A stretch of DNA of 64,000 bases from Natronobiforma cellulositropha (GTDB lineage Archaea; Halobacteriota; Halobacteria; Halobacteriales; Natrialbaceae): NCBI RefSeq assembly GCF_025629245.1, contig NZ_JANZXN010000059.1, positions 1 through 64,000 on the forward strand. Direction: 5' to 3'. Every line of letters begins with the position of its first letter. Positions within the stretch are counted from its first letter, which is position 1. Of this stretch, positions 45,250 to 54,632 are shown piece by piece. Below the pieces are notes generated by a model, which made no database searches, was not told the origin of the DNA, and saw nothing but the letters and a program-made list of their open reading frames with translations. The position numbers were made by a program, and so were the translations under genes.

Positions 45250-45645
45250 ATGTCCAGTGACCGACCCCACCCACTCGCCCGCCTCGAGACGCTCGCCCTG
45301 ATCGCCATCGGCGGCTTCGCCGGGGCGAATCTGCGCTTTTTCACCCTCGGCGTCGTCCCCGACGTCGTCGCGATTACGGCCGTGAACGCCGTCGGCAGCC
45401 TCCTGCTCGGCCTGCTGGTCTACGAGGCGCGGATCACCGGCATCGTCGGCCGCCGCGCCCGACTGGTCTTTACGACGGGCTTTCTCTCCTCGCTGACGAC
45501 CTACAGCGGGTTCGCCTTCCAGACCGCCATCGCGGGCGACCCGCGGGCGCTGCTCGCCATCGTCGCCGCCAACTACGCCCTCGGCTTCGCGGGCGTCCTC
45601 GCCGGACGCGCCCTCGCCCGCCGCCTCGGAGGTGAGCGCGCGTGA
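45250..45645 (+). CDS. crcB: CrcB/Fluc fluoride exporter subunit 1
   Basis: 131 residues with four membrane helices. GGFAGANLRFF (19-29) and NAVGSLLLGLLVYE are the first motifs; TTGFLSSLTTYSGFAFQ (about 75-91) is the family signature with the polar track. Fluoride channels act as antiparallel dimers, and many organisms encode two subunits in tandem, as here. The gene is directly under a fluoride riboswitch and its stop overlaps the GTG start of the second subunit. Confidence 0.93.
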   Translation: MSSDRPHPLARLETLALIAIGGFAGANLRFFTLGVVPDVVAITAVNAVGSLLLGLLVYEARITGIVGRRARLVFTTGFLSSLTTYSGFAFQTAIAGDPRALLAIVAANYALGFAGVLAGRALARRLGGERA

Positions 45646-46028
45646 GCCTCTCGACACTCGCCCTCCTCGCGTTCGACCCCGAACCCGCCCACCTCGTCGG
45701 TACCGGCGGCGCACTCGGCGCGCTGGCTCGCCACTGGGTGTACAGTCACCTCTCGAGCGAGCGCTTCCCGGTGGCGACGCTCCTCGTCAACGTCGTCGGG
45801 AGTTTCGTCTTCGCGCTGGTGGCCTTCGGTGGGGCGAGCGAGTCGGCGCTCCAGTTCGTCGGCGTCGGTGCCTGCGGGGCGTTCACGACCTTCTCGACGT
45901 TCTCGGTCGACACCGTACAGCTGTGGGAACGCGGCGACAGACGGCTGGCAGTCGTGAACGCGGTCGGCAATCTGGTCGCCGCGCTCGCCGGGGTCGGACT
46001 GGCGTGGGCACTCGTCGGGACCGTCTGA
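45642..46028 (+). CDS. crcB: CrcB/Fluc fluoride exporter subunit 2
   Basis: 128 residues with four helices. GALGALARHWVY (about 25-36), LLVNVVGSFVFALVAF (with the conserved Asn) and VGACGAFTTFSTFSVDTVQL are the family motifs. The start codon is GTG, overlapping the stop of the first gene by four bases (GTGA), so the two are translated together, probably as a heterodimer. It ends just before the defence-like island. Confidence 0.93.
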   Translation: MSLSTLALLAFDPEPAHLVGTGGALGALARHWVYSHLSSERFPVATLLVNVVGSFVFALVAFGGASESALQFVGVGACGAFTTFSTFSVDTVQLWERGDRRLAVVNAVGNLVAALAGVGLAWALVGTV

Positions 46029-46239
46029 TAATATGACTGATAAGTGAAAGAGATATCGTTGAGATGTGAGGAGGTTCGCTGTTTCGCTGATCACTCTGCT
46101 AGCGGGAAAGAATCGGCACAACCCTAGCTTTTTCGGTGGGTAGGGGCCAGTTGGGGCAGAAGCTGTCCGAATGGATGGAATTCTCAGACGTTATTTCCCG
46201 ATACGTTCTACAACAGGATCACGAAAGCTGAACGCGGCT

Positions 46240-46246
46240 CTTTACT
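46240..46246 (+). promoter_or_regulatory. TATA-like ctttact of the defence operon
   Basis: Predicts transcription from about 46270. A GGAG at 46279-46282, eight bases before the ATG at 46291, would act as a ribosome-binding site. This supports the shorter start for the ATPase. Confidence 0.45.
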
Positions 46247-46290
46247 TTCTGGTGGAAAGTATGAAGTGTAACAGTTGCGGAGAGACTACC

Positions 46291-48789
46291 ATGGCGATAT
46301 CTGAGTTCCTCACGCCCCGGGACGAAGTGAAGGAGGGGCAATTTCAGGGAGTTCTCCAGGCTCACAAGGTAGGTGAGTCCAGTCAGCGATTAGAGAACGA
46401 CCCCCAGCAGTTGCTCTCAATGACGTACCCCTCGAATGCCCTCCGAAGTGCGTTTGAACACGTTGGGGACAAACTAAATGGGCGTGATAACCAGGGCGCA
46501 ATCACCCTCTCTGGTCCGTACGGGGCCGGTAAATCGCACGGCCTGCTCGTTCTCTACCATCTGTTCAACGACCCCATCGTAGCCCAGGATTGGCTTGACC
46601 AATGGGACATTCCGATCAATCTCCCAGACTCCGCGAAGGCCTCAATCCTCTCGACGAGCAAGACCGACGCGGACCTGATTTGGGAGCCAATCTTCGACGA
46701 CTTGGGTGGCCAGAATATACTCGACGATATTGAACGCTATCCTACGACGGATCACATCGAGGAGCTGATTTCAGGGGAGAATGCAGCGATTTTCTTCGAC
46801 GAGATCGAGACTTGGTGGGAATCATTCGACAAACAAGAGGATGAGGAACTGCTGAACCGGAACGAGTTCTTCCTCCAGAACCTGCTCGAGGTGGCGAACG
46901 ATCCTAAGGAGGGGCTGTTCGTCTTCACGACGCTGCTTGACAAAAGCCAGGACCTGAAGCGGATTCTCAACCGGACCAACCCCTACGCGGTCGACCTAAA
47001 CGCGACCGGTGACCGGGAACGCATCATCCTTCACCGGCTCTTCGAGACACGGCGAAACGAAATCGACGAGCGTGCGGTCCGGGACGTTGTTCAGGAGTAC
47101 ATCGAGGGGTACGGTTACCCAATCGAACTCGAGGAGGAGAAACGCTACGAGAACCGGATGGTCGAGACGTATCCGTTCCATCCGGAGCTGCTCGACCTGC
47201 TCGACAGCCTCTACGAAGGTGGCCGTGAGCGACAGAACGTCCGGGGAGCAATGAACGTACTAGCGGAGACGGTTCGGAAGCGGTACGACGAGACCAGTCT
47301 CATCATCACGTCGGATATCGAGGCCGCGGCGTTCCGCGGCATCAACCAGACGTTGTTCAACCGCTACGTCTCCGACCAAGAGGCGATCGAGGATATTGAC
47401 TTCGGCGACGAACTGCTGAAGACCATCCTCCTGTATACACTCGACGAACGTTCGCAGATGGCGTCAGTGACCGAGTGTCTGCTCGGGACGTACAAGCCCG
47501 GGAAGACGTCCATCTCGAAGTTGGATATGTCCTTGGGGAGCCTCTACGGGACCGCGCACTACCTGGACAGGGACGAGCAGCAGGAGCACTACTATATCAC
47601 GGAGGACCCGAAGTTGACCGCGCTCGTCACACGCGAGCAAGAGCGGGTTCTGAGCCGGAACCGCGACTCCATCGAGGCGAAGCTCGCGGAGGTAGTCAAG
47701 GACGACGTCTGGAACGGTGAGATCTACATCTACCCCGATGACGTCCCAGACACGAACGAGATTTCCGTCGTGGTGACGCTCGACTATCTCTCGAACGGGG
47801 CACTCCAGGCGGAACTCGAGGAATTCTTCGAAAAACGGACCTACGCGAACACCGCGCTGTTCGTCACGCCGAACCAGAAGATCCGGGACGACAACGAGAT
47901 TATCAACAAGGCCGCACGGGTGCTCGGTGCGGAGAATCTTCGCGGGAAGGTCGACGACGACAACGGCGAACTCGGGAGAATCATCCGCGACGAACGTCGC
48001 GAACTCCGGAACGAACTCCAGGACCGGTACGGGAGCTGGGTTAAGTGGAGCGAGGACCCCAAAGGTGGGCTCAGGATGCGGAAGAAGAGTATCACGGCCG
48101 ACGTCCAGGACGTGAAGAGCAAGGTCGGGCGGGACAAGGCGTATGTCGGCGAGAAAATCATCGAGGAGGTTCGAGAGACAGACGGTGGTATCGCAATCGA
48201 GTCGATGCTGAACGACTTCCACCAATTCCGCCGGATGCCAGTGCTGCTCGACCGGAGCGTGTTCACCTCAGCGCTCGGTCAGCTCTACCGGGACGAGAAG
48301 ATCGTGCTCGAGGGTGACCGTGGAAAGTTCTCCGCGAAGCAGAAGAATGATCGGCTCCCCGACCTCGGCGACCAGCTCACCATCCACCATCCGGACAATC
48401 TCGACGAGTCCGTCTACACGGAGCAGACGTCGGGAATCGAGAGTAGTGGCGGTGCGTCCACGACGACGAGCGAAGGGCAAACCACGATTACGGAGGGGCA
48501 GGAGAGCACGATGAGCACGACGACGACAGTCGTCGATGATGACGACGACACGGAGTCGACCGTCGCCACAGAGACGGAGACGAAGCACGTCACGCTCCAG
48601 GGGCCGAACGCACGGGTGCTCCGGAGTCACGCCGAAGCGCGGGTCAACGGAGATTCGGATACCGTGACGAGTATCGACCTGTCCTACGACGTGGACGAGC
48701 TTTCAAAGGAGGAGCTAATCGAGTTCGTCGAGAGCCTTCCATCTGGGAACCACATCGACGCAACGGTGGTGATAGAGCGTGAAGTTTAG
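46291..48789 (+). CDS. DUF499/BrxC-like P-loop ATPase of a defence system
   Basis: 832 residues from the ATG at 46291; earlier ATGs (46171, 46261) exist but lack a ribosome site. The N-terminus LTPRDEVKEGQFQ...DPQQLLSMTYPSNALRSAFEHV matches the DUF499 opening. Walker A is GPYGAGKS (75-82) and Walker B AAIFFDE (165-171). C-terminal parts include a winged-helix-like region near 640-700, a Ser/Thr/Asp-rich linker (about 715-775) and a last 55-residue domain. BrxC/PglY and DUF499 proteins are ATPases of BREX and related phage-defence systems. It is shorter than the roughly 1,200-residue BrxC. GC content is lower than in flanking genes. The next gene overlaps its end by 11 bases. Confidence 0.82.
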   Translation: MAISEFLTPRDEVKEGQFQGVLQAHKVGESSQRLENDPQQLLSMTYPSNALRSAFEHVGDKLNGRDNQGAITLSGPYGAGKSHGLLVLYHLFNDPIVAQDWLDQWDIPINLPDSAKASILSTSKTDADLIWEPIFDDLGGQNILDDIERYPTTDHIEELISGENAAIFFDEIETWWESFDKQEDEELLNRNEFFLQNLLEVANDPKEGLFVFTTLLDKSQDLKRILNRTNPYAVDLNATGDRERIILHRLFETRRNEIDERAVRDVVQEYIEGYGYPIELEEEKRYENRMVETYPFHPELLDLLDSLYEGGRERQNVRGAMNVLAETVRKRYDETSLIITSDIEAAAFRGINQTLFNRYVSDQEAIEDIDFGDELLKTILLYTLDERSQMASVTECLLGTYKPGKTSISKLDMSLGSLYGTAHYLDRDEQQEHYYITEDPKLTALVTREQERVLSRNRDSIEAKLAEVVKDDVWNGEIYIYPDDVPDTNEISVVVTLDYLSNGALQAELEEFFEKRTYANTALFVTPNQKIRDDNEIINKAARVLGAENLRGKVDDDNGELGRIIRDERRELRNELQDRYGSWVKWSEDPKGGLRMRKKSITADVQDVKSKVGRDKAYVGEKIIEEVRETDGGIAIESMLNDFHQFRRMPVLLDRSVFTSALGQLYRDEKIVLEGDRGKFSAKQKNDRLPDLGDQLTIHHPDNLDESVYTEQTSGIESSGGASTTTSEGQTTITEGQESTMSTTTTVVDDDDDTESTVATETETKHVTLQGPNARVLRSHAEARVNGDSDTVTSIDLSYDVDELSKEELIEFVESLPSGNHIDATVVIEREV

Positions 48790-49669
48790 GACTGAGGCGC
48801 TGACCGGGCTGGTCGAGGCGGACGACCCTGTTGAGAGCGTCTGGGAATCGATGTGGGGGATCTGGAGTCCACCTGCCGAGTCTGTGAGCGACCACTACGA
48901 CCGCGAGACGCAGATGAAGACCTACGAGCGGTTGCTCGTTGACATCTATCAGGAGTTCTACGGCGACGTGCTTGCGGACCGGTGTGTCAACGAGGCGTCC
49001 ATGACCGTGCCCGAGGATGGAACCTTCGTCGTGATGGACGCGATGAGCGTCCGCGAGGGAAGCTTGCTTGTCGGGTACCTCCAAGACGAGGGCTACGAGC
49101 CGTCGGTCGGGTACTCGTTCTCGACGGTTCCCTCGGAGACGACGCCGTACCGGGAGCGCATCGGTTATACAGACCTGAAGCGGGAGTACAAGCAGCGGGA
49201 CGTAAAGGACGACGACCCGTCGCTGGACGGCGACGAGGACATCGTCTGGTGCCGGTTCCCCGACGCGCTGCTGGAAAACATCCAGGAGGGGAAGACGAAG
49301 CTCTCGACCATCGAGGAGATGTACGAGAAGACCGAGCGGACGTTCGGGCGCATCGTTGAGCAGCTCGACGCCGAGCGCATCGTCGTCGGGTCCGACCACG
49401 GCTACATCCGACTCGACTCCGGAAACACCTTCCCGGTCGGAGAGCAGAACAAGAAGCGGCTTCAGGAGACATTCAGCGGGCGCTTCGAGAGCGTCGCCGA
49501 CGTGAACGCCGACGCTCTCGTTGAGGAGGGCCTCGTAGTCGAAGCCGACGGATACTACATGCCCATCGGAAGGTACACCTGGCCAGCACGGGGCAAGTAC
49601 TCTACGTTCACTCATGGCGGCCTCAGCCTCACCGAATGCATCACACCGCGAATCGAATTCGAACTCTAA
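48779..49669 (+). CDS. short PglZ-domain protein
   Basis: 296 residues, GTG start overlapping the ATPase gene. Motifs of the PglZ/alkaline-phosphatase superfamily are present: VVMDAMSVREG with the metal Asp 87, IVVGSDHGYI with Asp 206 and His 207, and FTHGGLSLTECITP with His 279 and Glu 286. PglZ is the hallmark of BREX systems, where it is usually 700-900 residues; this one has only the core domain, without the N-terminal region. It sits between the ATPase and the methyltransferase and is probably made in stoichiometric amounts with them. Confidence 0.82.
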   Translation: MKFRTEALTGLVEADDPVESVWESMWGIWSPPAESVSDHYDRETQMKTYERLLVDIYQEFYGDVLADRCVNEASMTVPEDGTFVVMDAMSVREGSLLVGYLQDEGYEPSVGYSFSTVPSETTPYRERIGYTDLKREYKQRDVKDDDPSLDGDEDIVWCRFPDALLENIQEGKTKLSTIEEMYEKTERTFGRIVEQLDAERIVVGSDHGYIRLDSGNTFPVGEQNKKRLQETFSGRFESVADVNADALVEEGLVVEADGYYMPIGRYTWPARGKYSTFTHGGLSLTECITPRIEFEL

Positions 49670-49672
49670 TCC

Positions 49673-52336
49673 ATGACCGAAGACGACATCGACAGACGGC
49701 CTATCGAGATTACGTTCCCTATCGAGCAAGTCAACGAGATTGCGGACAAGGAGGCTCACGCGAAGCGGTACTATCGCCCTGTCTACACCATGCACAAGTG
49801 GTGGGCACGACGACTCGGCTCGGTATTCCGGAGTATGCTAATCTACGCACTCGCTGATGAGGAGATAACAGTCGATGGAGACCGTCAGTCAAAGCTCCAA
49901 GACGACGAAGGACTCCCAGTTGTTGACTGGGAGAACCCAGATGCACTTTGGGAATACTATCTCGAAGATGTGGATTTAGGAGGGAAGACAATTCTCGATC
50001 CCTTCATGGGTGGCGGTACCAGCATCGTTGAATCGATTCGCCTCGGGTGCAACGCGATTGGTAGCGAACTCAATCCCGTTGCTTGGTTCGTGGTCAAGAA
50101 AGAGGTTGAACCCGTTGATTTGGACGAGATGGATACTGCTCTAAAATCCATTGAAGAGAATGTCGGGCAAGAGATTCAGGACTATTATCGGACTGACTGC
50201 CCACACTGTGGAGGGGATGACCACTGTGCGGACTCAATGTACTATTTTTGGGTCAATGAACTCCCCTGTCGAAACTGTGGTGAAAACGTTGCCTTATTCA
50301 AAGACTACAGAATTGCAAACGCACGATCCTCGAAGGACGATTACTATAATGTAGCTTGTCCCGAGTGCTTGCATGTCTTCCAAACCGACGATTACCGTAC
50401 TGATACCACCTGCCCTGAGTGCTCGTGTGAGTACGTGCCGAATGAAGGGAACGTCCACAGAGGAACCTACACCTGCCCCCATTGTGACGAGCACCCCGAG
50501 ATGTCCATTGTGGAAAGCGTGGACCGGTTTGGAAAACCAGAGCAAAGACTCTATGCTGTCGAATATTATTGTTGGGAAACAGACGAGAAAGGATATAAGT
50601 CCGCTACAGAATTCGATCGGGAACTGGTTAAAATGGCGAAAGAGGAACTTTCAGAGAAATCTGAGGACCTCCTAATACCAACCACTCAGAGATACCGAGG
50701 AAGTTCTGACCGGGCACGGAGGCACGGGTTTGAAACATACGACCAGATGTTCAACGACCGGCAACTACTCTGTCTCTCCAAACTTTTGGCTGAAATCGAT
50801 AATCTTGATAATCAGAACATCAAGGAGTTCCTCCTTCTAGCATTTTCAAGTTCTCTCGCATACAACAATATGTTCTGTGAATATGATAAGCCATATAACA
50901 AATTAACAGGTATCTACAAACGGCACACAATTACTGCGAGACACACTCCCGTCGAAAACAACGTATGGGGTACAAAGTACGGTCGTGGTAGTTTCACAGG
51001 CGAATACAACAAGATGCGCGCTGGCAAGGAGTTCTGCCAGAACCCGTACGAGAAGTACGTCGAAGATGGGGAGACGAAGCAGCGAGACGGTGTCGGGAAA
51101 ATCGAGGGTCACCTCGTCAACGACCCATCGGAGTTGGGGAAGGAAGGGAACGTGTTCCTCCGCTGTGGAACCTCCGAGTACCTCCCGATAGAGGATGATA
51201 GCGTGGATGCAGTCATCACAGATCCCCCGTACTTCGACAACGTGATGTACTCCGAGACGGCGGACTTCTACTACGTCTGGCTCAAGCAAATTCTCGAGGA
51301 CGAGTACGAGCACTTCACCGCCGAACTCACGCCGAAGGCCAGCGAGGTGGTGAGTGACCCCGCCGGTGAGGATAGCGTCGATACGTACCGGGACGAAGAC
51401 CACTTCGTCACGGGGCTGACGAACGTCTTCGACCAGGCGAACCAGAAGTTGAAGGACGACGGCATCATGGCCTTCACCTTCCACCACAAGGAGACCGAGG
51501 GATGGAGTACGGTCCTGAAGTCCGTTCTCGAGGCGGGGTTCTACGTCACTGCGCTCTACCCTATTCGCGGAGAGATGCGGGGCAGTACCCACATCTACGA
51601 GAAAGCCAACATCGAGTACGACATGATCGTCGTCTGCCGGAACCGGGAGGTGGACCCCGAGCCGGTGAGCTGGCGCTCCCTTGAAGACGACATCTACTTC
51701 CGGGCGAGCGACGAAATCAACCGCCTCGAGGAGAGCGGCTCCCGGCTCACCCAGGGCGACATCTTCGCAGTAACGATGGGCAAGTGTCTCGAAGTATTCT
51801 CGAAGCACTACCCGAACGTCACCCACGAGGGCAACCCGATGTCCGTCGACGACGCGCTGGAGACCATTCGCGACATCGTCGACGACCAATTGATGGCCGA
51901 GCGGGTTCAGATCATGAGCGACGAGATGGACGCCCTGAGCGCCGTCTATCTCACCTACGTGCTTGGTCGCGGGAGCACCGTCTCCTACAACGCGCTGAAC
52001 AAGGACCTTCGACAGCGCGGCGTCGACGTCTCCGAACTCGTCCACGAGGGGCTGCTCAAACAGGATGGCGACTCGCTCCAAGTGCTGTCACCCAAGCAGC
52101 GCGCCGAGCGGATCGAGAGCAAGAAGAACCCGTTGGCCGTTGACAAGGCGCACTACCTCTACTACCTCCTCGAGACCGACGAACTCTCCCGAAAATTCGG
52201 GAAGTGGACCGACAAGGAGGCGATTGCCGCTCTCGGCCGACTGGCCGAGATCCACAACGACGACGATTACGCGGAGATTGCGGAGTACGTACACAAGAAT
52301 TCCGATACCCAGGCCGAGATTGGTCGGTTCTTCTGA
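49673..52336 (+). CDS. DUF1156-type DNA methyltransferase (PglXI-like)
   Basis: 887 residues, three bases after the PglZ gene. The DUF1156 start is visible in AHAKRYYRPVYTMHKWWARRLGSVFR (29-53). The SAM motif is ILDPFMGGGTS (107-117) and the catalytic motif DPPYFDN (517-523), typical of N6-adenine or N4-cytosine methylation. Between them lie Cys pairs at about 176-203, 229-232, 247-252 and 268-271, suggesting zinc ribbons. The stretch coding for about residues 125-450 is much AT-richer than the 3' part, which hints at a swapped recognition segment. In BREX type 3 a DUF1156 enzyme is called PglXI. It should mark self DNA. Confidence 0.87.
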   Translation: MTEDDIDRRPIEITFPIEQVNEIADKEAHAKRYYRPVYTMHKWWARRLGSVFRSMLIYALADEEITVDGDRQSKLQDDEGLPVVDWENPDALWEYYLEDVDLGGKTILDPFMGGGTSIVESIRLGCNAIGSELNPVAWFVVKKEVEPVDLDEMDTALKSIEENVGQEIQDYYRTDCPHCGGDDHCADSMYYFWVNELPCRNCGENVALFKDYRIANARSSKDDYYNVACPECLHVFQTDDYRTDTTCPECSCEYVPNEGNVHRGTYTCPHCDEHPEMSIVESVDRFGKPEQRLYAVEYYCWETDEKGYKSATEFDRELVKMAKEELSEKSEDLLIPTTQRYRGSSDRARRHGFETYDQMFNDRQLLCLSKLLAEIDNLDNQNIKEFLLLAFSSSLAYNNMFCEYDKPYNKLTGIYKRHTITARHTPVENNVWGTKYGRGSFTGEYNKMRAGKEFCQNPYEKYVEDGETKQRDGVGKIEGHLVNDPSELGKEGNVFLRCGTSEYLPIEDDSVDAVITDPPYFDNVMYSETADFYYVWLKQILEDEYEHFTAELTPKASEVVSDPAGEDSVDTYRDEDHFVTGLTNVFDQANQKLKDDGIMAFTFHHKETEGWSTVLKSVLEAGFYVTALYPIRGEMRGSTHIYEKANIEYDMIVVCRNREVDPEPVSWRSLEDDIYFRASDEINRLEESGSRLTQGDIFAVTMGKCLEVFSKHYPNVTHEGNPMSVDDALETIRDIVDDQLMAERVQIMSDEMDALSAVYLTYVLGRGSTVSYNALNKDLRQRGVDVSELVHEGLLKQDGDSLQVLSPKQRAERIESKKNPLAVDKAHYLYYLLETDELSRKFGKWTDKEAIAALGRLAEIHNDDDYAEIAEYVHKNSDTQAEIGRFF

Positions 52337-52357
52337 CTGGGCCGTTGTAATACTGAG

Positions 52358-52364
52358 ATTTAAG
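52358..52364 (+). promoter_or_regulatory. TATA-like atttaag before the fourth island gene
   Basis: Lies 34 bases before the ATG at 52395. It allows separate transcription of the small gene from the three upstream genes. Confidence 0.35.
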
Positions 52365-52394
52365 GCAGATAACGCATCACTTAATACCAGTTCA

Positions 52395-52793
52395 ATGAAC
52401 TTCGATATCGGATATCACGTTGTTGCTCGCGACGCACTCAACCAAGAGAACATGTTCGATGCCGAAATGAGTGTGGTCGAGTTCCTCCGTCAGGTAGAAC
52501 AGATGGGTGAGATTCCCTATAACGTCACTGTGCATGGTCTCGACACCTATCTCCAAGGTGCTGAGAGCCCCGAAGAACTCTGTTCGTTCATCAACCGTAT
52601 CTTCTCTGAAAGAGTGAATTTTCTGTTGAATAAGAACCCCATTGTTCAGTTCGTGGTTGACGATGTCGAGTTCTGGGACGAACCGGTCATTCCGAACGAC
52701 GACGGGGACATCAACCTCAATATGATTTTCCAAGGTTCTCTGGAACCTGAGGGTCCAAGCTGGCACTACAGTCGACTCAATATCACGTCTTGA
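52395..52793 (+). CDS. hypothetical protein at the end of the defence island
   Basis: 132 acidic residues, no signal peptide or membrane helix. Segments FDIGYHVVARDALNQENMFDAEMSVVEFLRQVEQMGEIPYNVTVHGLDTYL and NPIVQFVVDDVEFWDEPV look like an alpha/beta fold, but I recognise no family and it is neither BrxA nor BrxB by length or motif. It shares the lower GC of the island and begins 58 bases after the methyltransferase gene, so it may be an accessory or a control protein of the system. Confidence 0.6.
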   Translation: MNFDIGYHVVARDALNQENMFDAEMSVVEFLRQVEQMGEIPYNVTVHGLDTYLQGAESPEELCSFINRIFSERVNFLLNKNPIVQFVVDDVEFWDEPVIPNDDGDINLNMIFQGSLEPEGPSWHYSRLNITS

Positions 52794-53258
52794 GAAGACA
52801 TCCACAGAATTCGGGGAATTAATGCCAATCTGAACTTGCTACGGAGGTGACGCCAGGCGCTTTGCTGTTTCGGATTCATAGATATTTCTTGATGCTGAGA
52901 TAGGTTCACGGTCTACTCTGCGGGCTCGAGAGCAACAGGCGACATTGAACGACTGCCAGTGATACTAACCTAGGAAACGGTAAAGGTCTCTGCTTCCAAC
53001 GCCTCGGTCTACTCGGTTACCCCTCTCGATTTGTTCGGTATGTCGTACCTATCGAGGTAGGCCTTTTCCCTTCGTTGCTGCTCAAGCCCCTTGCCTACCC
53101 CCTTTTAACAGGACATCGCTGCTCGTTTTTTGAGCTGAACGACCACCTTTGGAGCAGGGGTAGTGACCACGGCAGAGATGAGTTAGCAGGGACAACACCC
53201 AGCCGTTCACACACATCCGACACGGTTTTGCCGGGGCGTGCGGAATCGAGAGACGAGA
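52794..53258. other. 465-base gap between defence island and serS
   Basis: No gene or known RNA is visible. The sequence changes from AT-richer to host-like composition here. It has a ctcgat/atcgag inverted repeat near 53026-53061 and a run of T near 53130. This is probably the right border of the island. Confidence 0.5.
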
Positions 53259-54632
53259 ATGCTCGACCGGAACACCCTGCGCGACGACACCGACGAGGTG
53301 CGGGCGGCCCTCGAGAACCGGGGGACCGACGTCGACCTCGAGGCGGTGCTCGCGCTCGACGAGCAGTGGCGGGAGTTGAAGGCCGAAGGCGACGACCTCA
53401 GACGCCAGCGCAACGAGGTCAGCTCGCAGATCGGCCAGCTCAAAGCCGAGGGCGACGAGCAGGCCGCCCAGGAGGCCATCGAGGCCTCCGGCGCGCTCAA
53501 AGCCGACATCGAGCGCGTCGAGGCGGAGGCCGCCGCGCTCGAAGCGGACCTCGAGACGGCGCTGCTCGAGTTCCCGCAGGTGCCCCAGGAGAGCGTCCCC
53601 GTCGGCGCGGACGAGGGGGACAACGTCGAACACCGCCGCTGGGGCTTCGACGACCTCCGGGAGCTACCCGAGACGGTGGTCCCCCACTACGACCTCGGCG
53701 AGGACCTCGACATCATCGACGAGGCGCGGGCGGCGAAGACCACCGGCTCCGGCTTTTACTTCCTCAAGGGTGACGGCGCGCGACTCGAGCACGCGCTGAT
53801 CCAGTTCATGCTCGACGTCCACCGCGAGCAGGGCTACGTCGACGTCTGTCCCCCGGTCCCGGTCAAGAGCGCGTCGATGCGCGGCACCGGCCAGTTGCCG
53901 AAGTTCGCCGACGACGCCTACCGGCTGGGCGGGAGCAACGAGGAAGCCTACACGGACGAGGACCTCTGGCTGTGTCCGACCGCCGAAGTGCCGGTGACCA
54001 ACATGTACGCCGAGGAGATTCTGCTGCGCGAGGACCTCCCGCTGAAACACCAGGCCTACACCCCGAACTTCCGTCGCGAGGCGGGCGAACACGGCACCGA
54101 AACCAGGGGCATCGTCCGCGTCCACCAGTTCAACAAGGTCGAACTCGTCAACTTCGTCGAACCCGAGGAGAGCGACGACCGACTCGAGGGCTTACTCGAG
54201 GAGGCCGAAGCGGTCTTACGACGGCTCGGACTGCCCTACCGCATCCTCGAACTCTGTACCGGCGACCTGACGTTCGCGAGCGCGAAGACCTACGACATCG
54301 AGGTCTGGGCACCCGCCGACGACTTCGAGGACGGTCCCGAGGAGGGTGGGCGCTGGCTCGAGGTCTCGAGTGCGTCGAACTTCGAGGACTTTCAGGCCCG
54401 CCGGGCGGGCATCCGCTACCGCCGGGAACACCACGAGTCGGCCGAGTACCTCCACACGCTCAACGCCTCCGGTCTCGCCCTCCCGCGGGTGATGGTGGCG
54501 GTGCTCGAGTACTACCAGAACGAGGACGGGACCGTGACGGTTCCGGAGGCGCTCCGGCCGTACATGGGCGGCCAGGAGGTCATCGAGGGCCACGAGAAAG
54601 TCGGCGAGAGCGCACTCGGCGCGGGCGAGTAA
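53259..54632 (+). CDS. serS: seryl-tRNA synthetase
   Basis: 457 residues, the bacterial/haloarchaeal-type class II enzyme. The N-terminal coiled-coil arm that holds tRNA-Ser is clear (about 30-105, many Lys/Glu/Gln heptads). Class II motif 2 is YTPNFRREAGEHGTETRGIVRVHQFNKVE and motif 3 GLALPRVMVAVLEYYQNEDG. LCPTAEVPVTNMY is the Ser-binding part. The start MLDRNTLRDD is preferred over one seven codons upstream because this is the normal SerS beginning. Confidence 0.95.
   Translation: MLDRNTLRDDTDEVRAALENRGTDVDLEAVLALDEQWRELKAEGDDLRRQRNEVSSQIGQLKAEGDEQAAQEAIEASGALKADIERVEAEAAALEADLETALLEFPQVPQESVPVGADEGDNVEHRRWGFDDLRELPETVVPHYDLGEDLDIIDEARAAKTTGSGFYFLKGDGARLEHALIQFMLDVHREQGYVDVCPPVPVKSASMRGTGQLPKFADDAYRLGGSNEEAYTDEDLWLCPTAEVPVTNMYAEEILLREDLPLKHQAYTPNFRREAGEHGTETRGIVRVHQFNKVELVNFVEPEESDDRLEGLLEEAEAVLRRLGLPYRILELCTGDLTFASAKTYDIEVWAPADDFEDGPEEGGRWLEVSSASNFEDFQARRAGIRYRREHHESAEYLHTLNASGLALPRVMVAVLEYYQNEDGTVTVPEALRPYMGGQEVIEGHEKVGESALGAGE

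What the first reader, a model, noticed from the sequence alone, without database searches (positions are those of the whole stretch)
46291..52793. Compact BREX-like island: DUF499 ATPase, short PglZ and DUF1156 methyltransferase, no helicase
The sequence shows three tightly packed genes with intact Walker A/B, PglZ metal residues and DPPY methylase motifs, plus a fourth unknown gene. Known BREX types and the DUF499/DUF1156 anti-phage loci I recall include a helicase, BrxA/BrxB/BrxL-type or DUF3780 partners. None is present here between crcB and serS. The cluster could be a minimal defence system in which the ATPase and PglZ core act with a methyltransferase alone.
Basis: partly seen in the sequence, partly recalled or inferred. 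Interest (0 to 1): 0.87.

Follow-up and report, generated by a model that had tools for sequence, protein, structure and literature searches.

The report
Helicase-free four-gene BREX-like archaeal system
A four-gene DNA-modification and DNA-cutting cassette, probably an antivirus defence, is carried unchanged in layout by many salt-loving archaea and lacks the helicase that its known bacterial relatives carry, so it may show the smallest set of parts such a defence needs.

Summary
Window 46291-52793 encodes a DUF499 AAA+ ATPase, a stand-alone PglZ, a DUF1156 adenine-type methyltransferase (MTase) and a small unnamed protein D, all intact. It is not a one-off. In 394 Halobacteriales genomes, 25 further loci carry the same four genes in the same order, two divergent clades, under purifying selection, with different neighbours and no conserved helicase; other archaea of the phylum carry it too. 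Closest known kind: Type-3 BREX-Related (BR) system (Rakesh & Krishnan 2026). All eight bacterial examples I examined read ATPase-PglZ-MTase-small protein-SNF2 helicase. The archaeal cassette keeps that order and lacks the helicase; D sits where the inactive-STAND subunit sits (homology plausible, not proven). No HmaA/BrxHII-type helicase was found anywhere in 8 of 26 carrier genomes, the window's among them, and there are no remnants, so decay or help in trans do not explain it generally. The island is an insertion between crcB and serS (relatives have short crcB-serS gaps; lower GC). Loci with 97-98% identical ATPases differ sharply in the MTase target-recognition region, as expected if the MTase sets specificity. 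Verdict: a new helicase-less variant of a known kind; defence function inferred, not shown.

The parts
46291..48789 (+). DUF499 AAA+ ATPase (832 aa); Walker A 75-83, Walker B D170-E171
   Evidence: Pfam DUF499 35.5 bits and PADLOC HmaC 67.3 bits; motifs invariant in 26 homologues; start at 46291 supported by homologues, an upstream in-frame ATG at 46171 is less likely
48779..49669 (+). stand-alone PglZ (296 aa), predicted metal-dependent nuclease/phosphodiesterase
   Evidence: profile hits PglZ 9nv3 E=8.9e-7 and PorX; catalytic/metal residues invariant in 25
49673..52336 (+). DUF1156-type adenine DNA methyltransferase (887 aa): motif I DPFMGGGT at 109-116, DPPY at 517-520, cysteine-rich target-recognition region between them
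   Evidence: Pfam N6_N4_Mtase 51.5 bits, DUF1156 26.6 bits; PADLOC HmaB 163.7 bits; NCBIfam DUF1156_antiphage 106 bits (below its equivalog cut-off); TRD-region divergence
52395..52793 (+). protein D (132 aa), fourth core subunit, candidate short inactive-STAND (BrxB/BrxF-like) adaptor
   Evidence: conserved at the same place in 26/26 loci; no Pfam/PADLOC/NCBIfam family; AF2 model pLDDT 80; same position and similar predicted topology as the Type-3 BR small protein
46029..53237 (.). inserted island (7.2 kb) between crcB and serS
   Evidence: relatives hold crcB-crcB-serS with about 0.6-1.8 kb between crcB and serS; gene GC 0.48-0.62 against 0.69 in flanks
46253..46268 (+). conserved element GGAAAGTATGAAGTGT about 25-40 bases upstream of the ATPase start, candidate promoter/operator
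   Evidence: alignment of 12 clade-1 upstream regions, consensus TGGAAAACATCAAGTAGG, weak in L044

Best explanation
It is a complete, mobile, four-gene restriction-modification-like antivirus system: a helicase-less archaeal variant of the Type-3 BREX-Related (BR) kind. Proposed mechanism: the MTase, through its cysteine-rich target-recognition region, marks host DNA at a specific site by adenine methylation and also recognises unmarked sites. The DUF499 ATPase, protein D and PglZ form a complex equivalent to BrxC:BrxB:PglZ of BREX, with D bridging ATPase and PglZ; when unmethylated sites are met on incoming DNA, the ATP-dependent switch of the ATPase loads PglZ, which cuts the DNA with its metal site. 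No dedicated SNF2 motor takes part. Shown here: gene content, intact motifs, conservation, purifying selection, absence of the helicase, insertion, and recombination-like diversity of the MTase. Inferred: methylation, complex formation, DNA cutting, defence, and D as an inactive-STAND adaptor.
For: Identical order ATPase-PglZ-MTase-D in 25/25 further Halobacteriales loci with different flanks, on chromosomes and plasmids, and in non-haloarchaeal archaea L101 (and L098 with a HerA-type ATPase added). No BR-type helicase conserved beside the module: 22 of 25 loci have none in the fetched flanks and 3 have only scattered partial or weak SF2 hits. No HmaA-type helicase at E <= 1e-10 anywhere in 8 of 26 carrier genomes, two positive controls ring; none in the window's genome. 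No helicase remnants in the island. dN/dS below 0.2 in all four genes in all comparisons that could be computed, except D in one near-identical pair. Bacterial Type-3 BR, 8/8 loci: same order plus small protein and helicase. BREX PglZ is a metal-dependent nuclease using T538/H741 (PMC12205998), which correspond to invariant T121/H279 here; BrxC, BrxB and PglZ form a core complex (PMC13326643). MTase recognition region diverges while the ATPase stays 97-98% identical.
Against: No experiment shows methylation, cutting or defence. Most carrier genomes (18 of 26) do hold some HmaA-type SNF2 helicase elsewhere. Homology of D with the inactive-STAND protein is not statistically firm: one of three final profile comparisons beats all 60 shuffles, the others do not; Foldseek finds only weak P-loop matches for D, E > 0.1, and the model of the bacterial counterpart is poor. 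Trees do not resolve whether the helicase was lost or never present.
Confidence: 0.7

Rival explanations
1. It is an ordinary Type-3 BR or Hma-like system whose helicase is supplied in trans, or a system that has recently lost its helicase and is decaying.
For: The published core of BR systems includes a helicase (PMC12839542); 18 of 26 carrier genomes hold some HmaA-type SNF2 helicase, in several cases as part of another BR system.
Against: 8 of 26 carrier genomes, the window's included, have none; no remnant in the island; all four genes intact and constrained in 26 loci of two divergent clades.
Confidence: 0.12
2. It is not a restriction system: the MTase with ATPase and PglZ is an epigenetic regulator or a stability (addiction) module of plasmids and islands.
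For: The module sits on several plasmids and in an inserted island; no defence phenotype is known.
Against: All protein relatives with known or predicted roles are defence proteins; PglZ keeps its full catalytic set; MTase specificity region is diversified, typical of restriction systems.
Confidence: 0.13
3. PglZ acts not on DNA but on a signalling nucleotide, so that the system works by signalling or abortive infection.
For: PorX and BREX PglZ cleave cyclic and linear oligonucleotides (PMC12205998).
Against: No cyclase or nucleotide-sensing effector gene in the conserved core; BREX PglZ also cuts plasmid and phage DNA (PMC12205998).
Confidence: 0.08
4. Protein D is not an inactive-STAND adaptor but an unrelated new subunit (for example an inhibitor or a protector).
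For: No family assignment; profile comparison with the bacterial small protein mostly not significant; D is shorter and lacks a clear beta-sheet insert.
Against: Same position after the MTase, collinear F-L...P...V-x-G-L pattern, similar order of predicted secondary-structure elements, and weak structural matches dominated by RecA/KaiC/AAA P-loops.
Confidence: 0.3

Closest known systems
Type-3 BREX-Related (BR) system (Rakesh & Krishnan, NAR 2026, PMC12839542)
   Same: DUF499 ATPase, DUF1156 MTase with recognition insert and zinc-finger cysteines, stand-alone active PglZ, small gene after the MTase; same gene order as bacterial examples L103-L105 and L159-L163
   Different: No BrxHII-like SNF2 helicase; D is shorter (127-132 against 165-173 aa) and not securely homologous to the inactive-STAND gene; PglZ only 24-25% identical to the plasmid-borne bacterial ones
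Hma / Type-1 and Type-2 BR systems (PADLOC HmaABC)
   Same: ATPase and MTase are homologous (HmaC 67 bits, HmaB 164 bits)
   Different: PglZ in place of the helicase-nuclease; no HmaA, no DUF3780
BREX type 1 BrxC:BrxB:PglZ core (PMC12205998, PMC13326643)
   Same: AAA+ ATPase with PglZ nuclease, candidate inactive-STAND bridge, site-specific adenine MTase
   Different: DUF499 rather than DUF6079 ATPase, PglZ without N- and C-terminal extensions, no BrxA or BrxL in the cassette, different MTase type
Group-3 haloarchaeal DUF499 loci found here (L139-L150)
   Same: Homologous ATPase, MTase and D (D profiles align at E = 1.5e-13)
   Different: Carry an SNF2 helicase in several loci and often a McrB/McrC pair, and no PglZ

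Membership tests
Type-3 BR system | DUF499 AAA+ ATPase | tested here: met
   Pfam DUF499 35.5 bits over cut-off 23; Walker motifs invariant
Type-3 BR system | N6-type MTase with DUF1156, target-recognition insert between motif I and DPPY, zinc-finger cysteines | tested here: met
Type-3 BR system | stand-alone PglZ with intact active site, no fusions | tested here: met
   296 aa; D87, T121, D162, D206, H207, H279 invariant; PDB profile hit
Type-3 BR system | BrxHII-like SNF2 helicase as a core component | tested here: not met
   none in the island, none conserved beside the module in 25 other loci, none in 8 of 26 carrier genomes
Type-3 BR system | inactive-STAND gene in the locus (82% of taxa) | tested here: inconclusive
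   D holds the position and a similar topology; sequence statistics weak
Type-3 BR system | C-terminal RRM-like domain of the ATPase | not tested
   no structure of the ATPase predicted
Hma / Type-1 BR system | HmaA helicase-nuclease | tested here: not met
   absent from the locus and from the window's genome
BREX (canonical) | BrxC-type (DUF6079) ATPase | tested here: not met
   Pfam scan finds DUF499 only; BrxC profiles at best 13 bits
BREX (canonical) | BrxA, BrxL and long PglZ | tested here: not met
   no such genes in the cassette and PglZ is 296 aa; BrxA and BrxL were not searched genome-wide; no other PglZ over the family threshold in the genome
any of these | protects against viruses; methylates a motif | not testable with these tools
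   needs experiment

The most novel reading that the evidence does not exclude
The four proteins alone are a complete BREX-type defence: PglZ is the only nuclease, the ATPase-D-PglZ complex needs no helicase or translocase partner, and the MTase is the only specificity subunit for both marking and cutting. That would make it the smallest BREX-like system known and fix the minimal machinery.
Probability: 0.5. Interest if true: 0.76.

Novelty: new variant of a known kind. Interest (0 to 1): 0.62.

Why it matters
How BREX stops viruses is still unsettled, partly because its systems have many parts, including helicases or BrxL. A natural, conserved four-part version with PglZ as the only apparent effector would let the field test whether the ATPase, adaptor and PglZ suffice and whether the methyltransferase alone sets specificity. 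It occurs on pHLAC01 of Halorubrum lacusprofundi, whose plasmid-free laboratory strain is virus-sensitive and which is genetically tractable (PMC10544981), so the test is practical. It also qualifies the published definition of Type-3 BR systems, in which a helicase is a core component.

Tried and rejected
Viral contigs hold no relative of the archaeal PglZ. D against Pfam, PADLOC and NCBIfam gave only chance-level hits; D against PDB sequences gave only weak LYR-motif hits, rejected. Profile comparison D against the bacterial small protein with three sequences was not significant; with eight, only the widest D set exceeded its shuffles. Foldseek of the low-confidence bacterial model was uninformative. 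A decayed full locus was rejected: no remnants, strong constraint. The only SNF2-family match in the genome (C24, 682 aa) looks by reading like an archaeal XPB-type helicase, not BrxHII. Loss versus ancestral absence of the helicase was left open: the ATPase and MTase trees disagree at the base and warn of long branches. I first expected the third MTase group to be the same system without PglZ; it proved to be a separate helicase/McrBC-associated arrangement.
Full report
WHAT IS THERE. The window is a stretch of a haloarchaeal genome (G000, contig C55, 60 contigs, 96.5% complete). Between crcB (45642-46028) and serS (53238-54632) lie four co-directional genes: a DUF499 AAA+ ATPase (46291-48789), a 296-aa PglZ (48779-49669), a DUF1156 methyltransferase (49673-52336) and a 132-aa protein D (52395-52793). 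Pfam, PADLOC and NCBIfam place the ATPase and the MTase near the HmaC/HmaB (DUF499/DUF1156) anti-phage proteins, though far below the NCBIfam equivalog cut-offs. PglZ scores 21.3 bits against Pfam PglZ (cut-off 25), but a profile of its relatives hits the solved PglZ proteins 9nv3 and 9zn5 and PorX, with the DHG and HGG motifs aligned. D matches no family.

IT IS A CONSERVED MODULE. A search of 394 Halobacteriales genomes with the PglZ protein found the window and 25 other full-length short-PglZ loci; 20-kb regions were fetched. All 25 carry ATPase, PglZ, MTase and D in the same order and orientation. They fall in two clades: clade 1 (window and L034-L044; PglZ about 59-79% identical to the window's) and clade 2 (L045-L059; PglZ 27-32%, larger ATPase of about 930 aa). 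Each clade is supported at 100 in both trees. Flanking genes differ from genome to genome, and the module is also on plasmids of Haloplanus, Halorubrum lacusprofundi, Natrarchaeobaculum, Halobacterium salinarum and Haladaptatus. A scan of named genomes gave 17 loci, all haloarchaeal. In the rest of the phylum, L101 has the same four genes, and L098 has them followed by a HerA-type ATPase. dN/dS was below 0.2 for every gene in every pair that could be computed, except D in one near-identical pair (dS 0.02), so all four genes are kept by selection.

NO HELICASE. Profiles of three kinds of BR-type SNF2 helicase (bacterial Type-3, haloarchaeal group 3, and PLD/REase-type Type-1) find nothing beside the window's module and none that is conserved beside the others: 22 of 25 loci have no hit in the fetched flanks, the other three have scattered partial or weak SF2 matches 1.5-4 kb away. 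In the window's genome the Type-3 helicase protein and the HmaA profile find nothing; the one SNF2-domain match is a 682-aa ORF that reads like archaeal XPB. Across all 26 carrier genomes, 8 (G000, G242, G078, G153, G244, G267, G301, G310) have no HmaA-type match at E <= 1e-10, while two positive controls ring. The island holds no helicase remnant. Limits: several of these genomes are drafts, and a helicase of a quite different family could still serve.

INSERTION. Three relatives have crcB-crcB-serS with about 0.6 to 1.8 kb between crcB and serS, against 7.2 kb in the window. GC is 0.54-0.62 in the three large genes and 0.48 in D, against 0.69 in the flanks. The island was most likely acquired.

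WHAT IT RESEMBLES. Type-3 BREX-Related systems (PMC12839542, read) are defined by DUF499 ATPase, DUF1156-type MTase, a BrxHII-like helicase, an active stand-alone PglZ in all 569 taxa and an inactive-STAND gene in 82%. Eight bacterial loci examined here (plasmids L103-L105; IMG/VR contigs L159-L163) all read ATPase-PglZ-(extra genes in one)-MTase-small protein of 165-173 aa-SNF2 helicase. The archaeal cassette keeps this order up to the small protein and lacks the helicase. By the published definition a tested core feature is not met, so it should not be filed as a plain Type-3 BR member; it works like one and is best called a helicase-less variant. The main text of that paper names no haloarchaea and no helicase-less form; its supplementary tables could not be read here, so some of these loci may have been counted there.

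PROTEIN D. D occupies the position of the inactive-STAND gene. AlphaFold2 with 26 sequences gives pLDDT 80 and a beta-alpha-beta-alpha-alpha-alpha-beta...beta-beta order. Foldseek finds no significant match, but the weak list is dominated by RecA, KaiC, Rad51 and AAA P-loop folds. The model of the bacterial small protein is poor (pLDDT 62), but its elements come in a similar order. Profile comparison is weak: the widest D set against eight bacterial sequences exceeds all 60 column shuffles at the collinear F-L...P...V-x-G-L stretch, narrower sets do not. I rate D as a short inactive-STAND adaptor at about 0.65. D is clearly homologous to a small protein of a second haloarchaeal arrangement, group 3 (E = 1.5e-13).

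HOW IT PROBABLY WORKS. Shown by sequence: catalytic residues of ATPase, PglZ and MTase are invariant. In BREX, PglZ T538 and H741 are needed for metal-dependent DNA cutting, and PglZ binds BrxB (PMC12205998); they correspond to the invariant T121 and H279 here, going by the alignment with solved PglZ and PorX. BrxC, BrxB and PglZ form an ATP-dependent core complex (PMC13326643). Shown by comparison: L046 and L048 have ATPases 98.4% identical, yet their MTases, 93-100% identical near the N terminus and 96-100% in the C-terminal part, fall to 46-89% between motif I and DPPY; L046 and L047 have ATPases 96.9% identical while the MTase is 37-72% identical up to about residue 650 and 95-100% beyond it. 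The recognition region thus changes under an almost constant ATPase, D and PglZ. Inferred: the MTase sets the site for both marking and cutting; ATPase, D and PglZ form the restriction complex; PglZ cuts unmarked DNA; no SNF2 motor is needed.

PRACTICAL TEST SYSTEM. The module is HLAC_RS16270-16285 on pHLAC01 of Halorubrum lacusprofundi. The laboratory strain ACAM34_UNSW has lost pHLAC01 and is sensitive to HRTV-DL1, whereas the type strain blocks the virus (PMC10544981). That resistance is not evidence for this module: pHLAC01 also carries a CRISPR array matching the virus. The sensitive strain is, however, a ready host for adding the four genes back.

SCORING. The feature is real, conserved and under selection, and the absence of the helicase is tested in several ways. 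It lies close to a kind described in 2026, so it is a new variant, not a new category. Interest is raised by the prospect of a minimal BREX-like core in a tractable archaeon.

Noticed in passing
L139-L150 (12 haloarchaeal regions): A second haloarchaeal DUF499 arrangement without PglZ: 1079-aa ATPase, related MTase, D homologue, in many loci a 585-aa SNF2 helicase with a 388-397-aa unknown protein, and in most a McrB-like AAA/McrC pair; McrBC may replace PglZ as the nuclease.
   Followed up: partly
L098:6494-14666: A non-haloarchaeal archaeon (G416) has ATPase-PglZ-MTase-D followed 7 bases later by a HerA-type ATPase (DUF87), as if a different motor had been added.
   Followed up: partly
L046, L047, L048 MTase genes: Near-identical modules with sharply divergent MTase recognition regions, indicating specificity exchange by recombination.
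   Followed up: yes
window 46253-46268 and upstream of the ATPase in clade-1 loci: Conserved element with consensus TGGAAAACATCAAGTAGG shortly upstream of the ATPase start; could be a promoter element or an operator.
   Followed up: partly
L038, L040, L041, L042 downstream of D; also L106 and L193: A Dam-like adenine methylase gene follows D in several clade-1 loci of one sub-branch and may be an accessory part.
   Followed up: no
L103:6110-8987: In a Klebsiella Type-3 BR locus a SIR2-family gene and an ATP-binding protein gene are inserted between PglZ and the MTase; the same PglZ (69.7% identical to the Ensifer query) recurs on many enterobacterial plasmids.
   Followed up: no
L047, L045, L049, L106 upstream of the ATPase: An Orc1/Cdc6-type gene, divergently oriented, lies just upstream of the module in several loci.
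   Followed up: no
window 52392-52805, - strand: A 137-aa ORF antisense to D scores as coding-like but is an artefact of the opposite strand; the + strand frame is the conserved one.
   Followed up: yes
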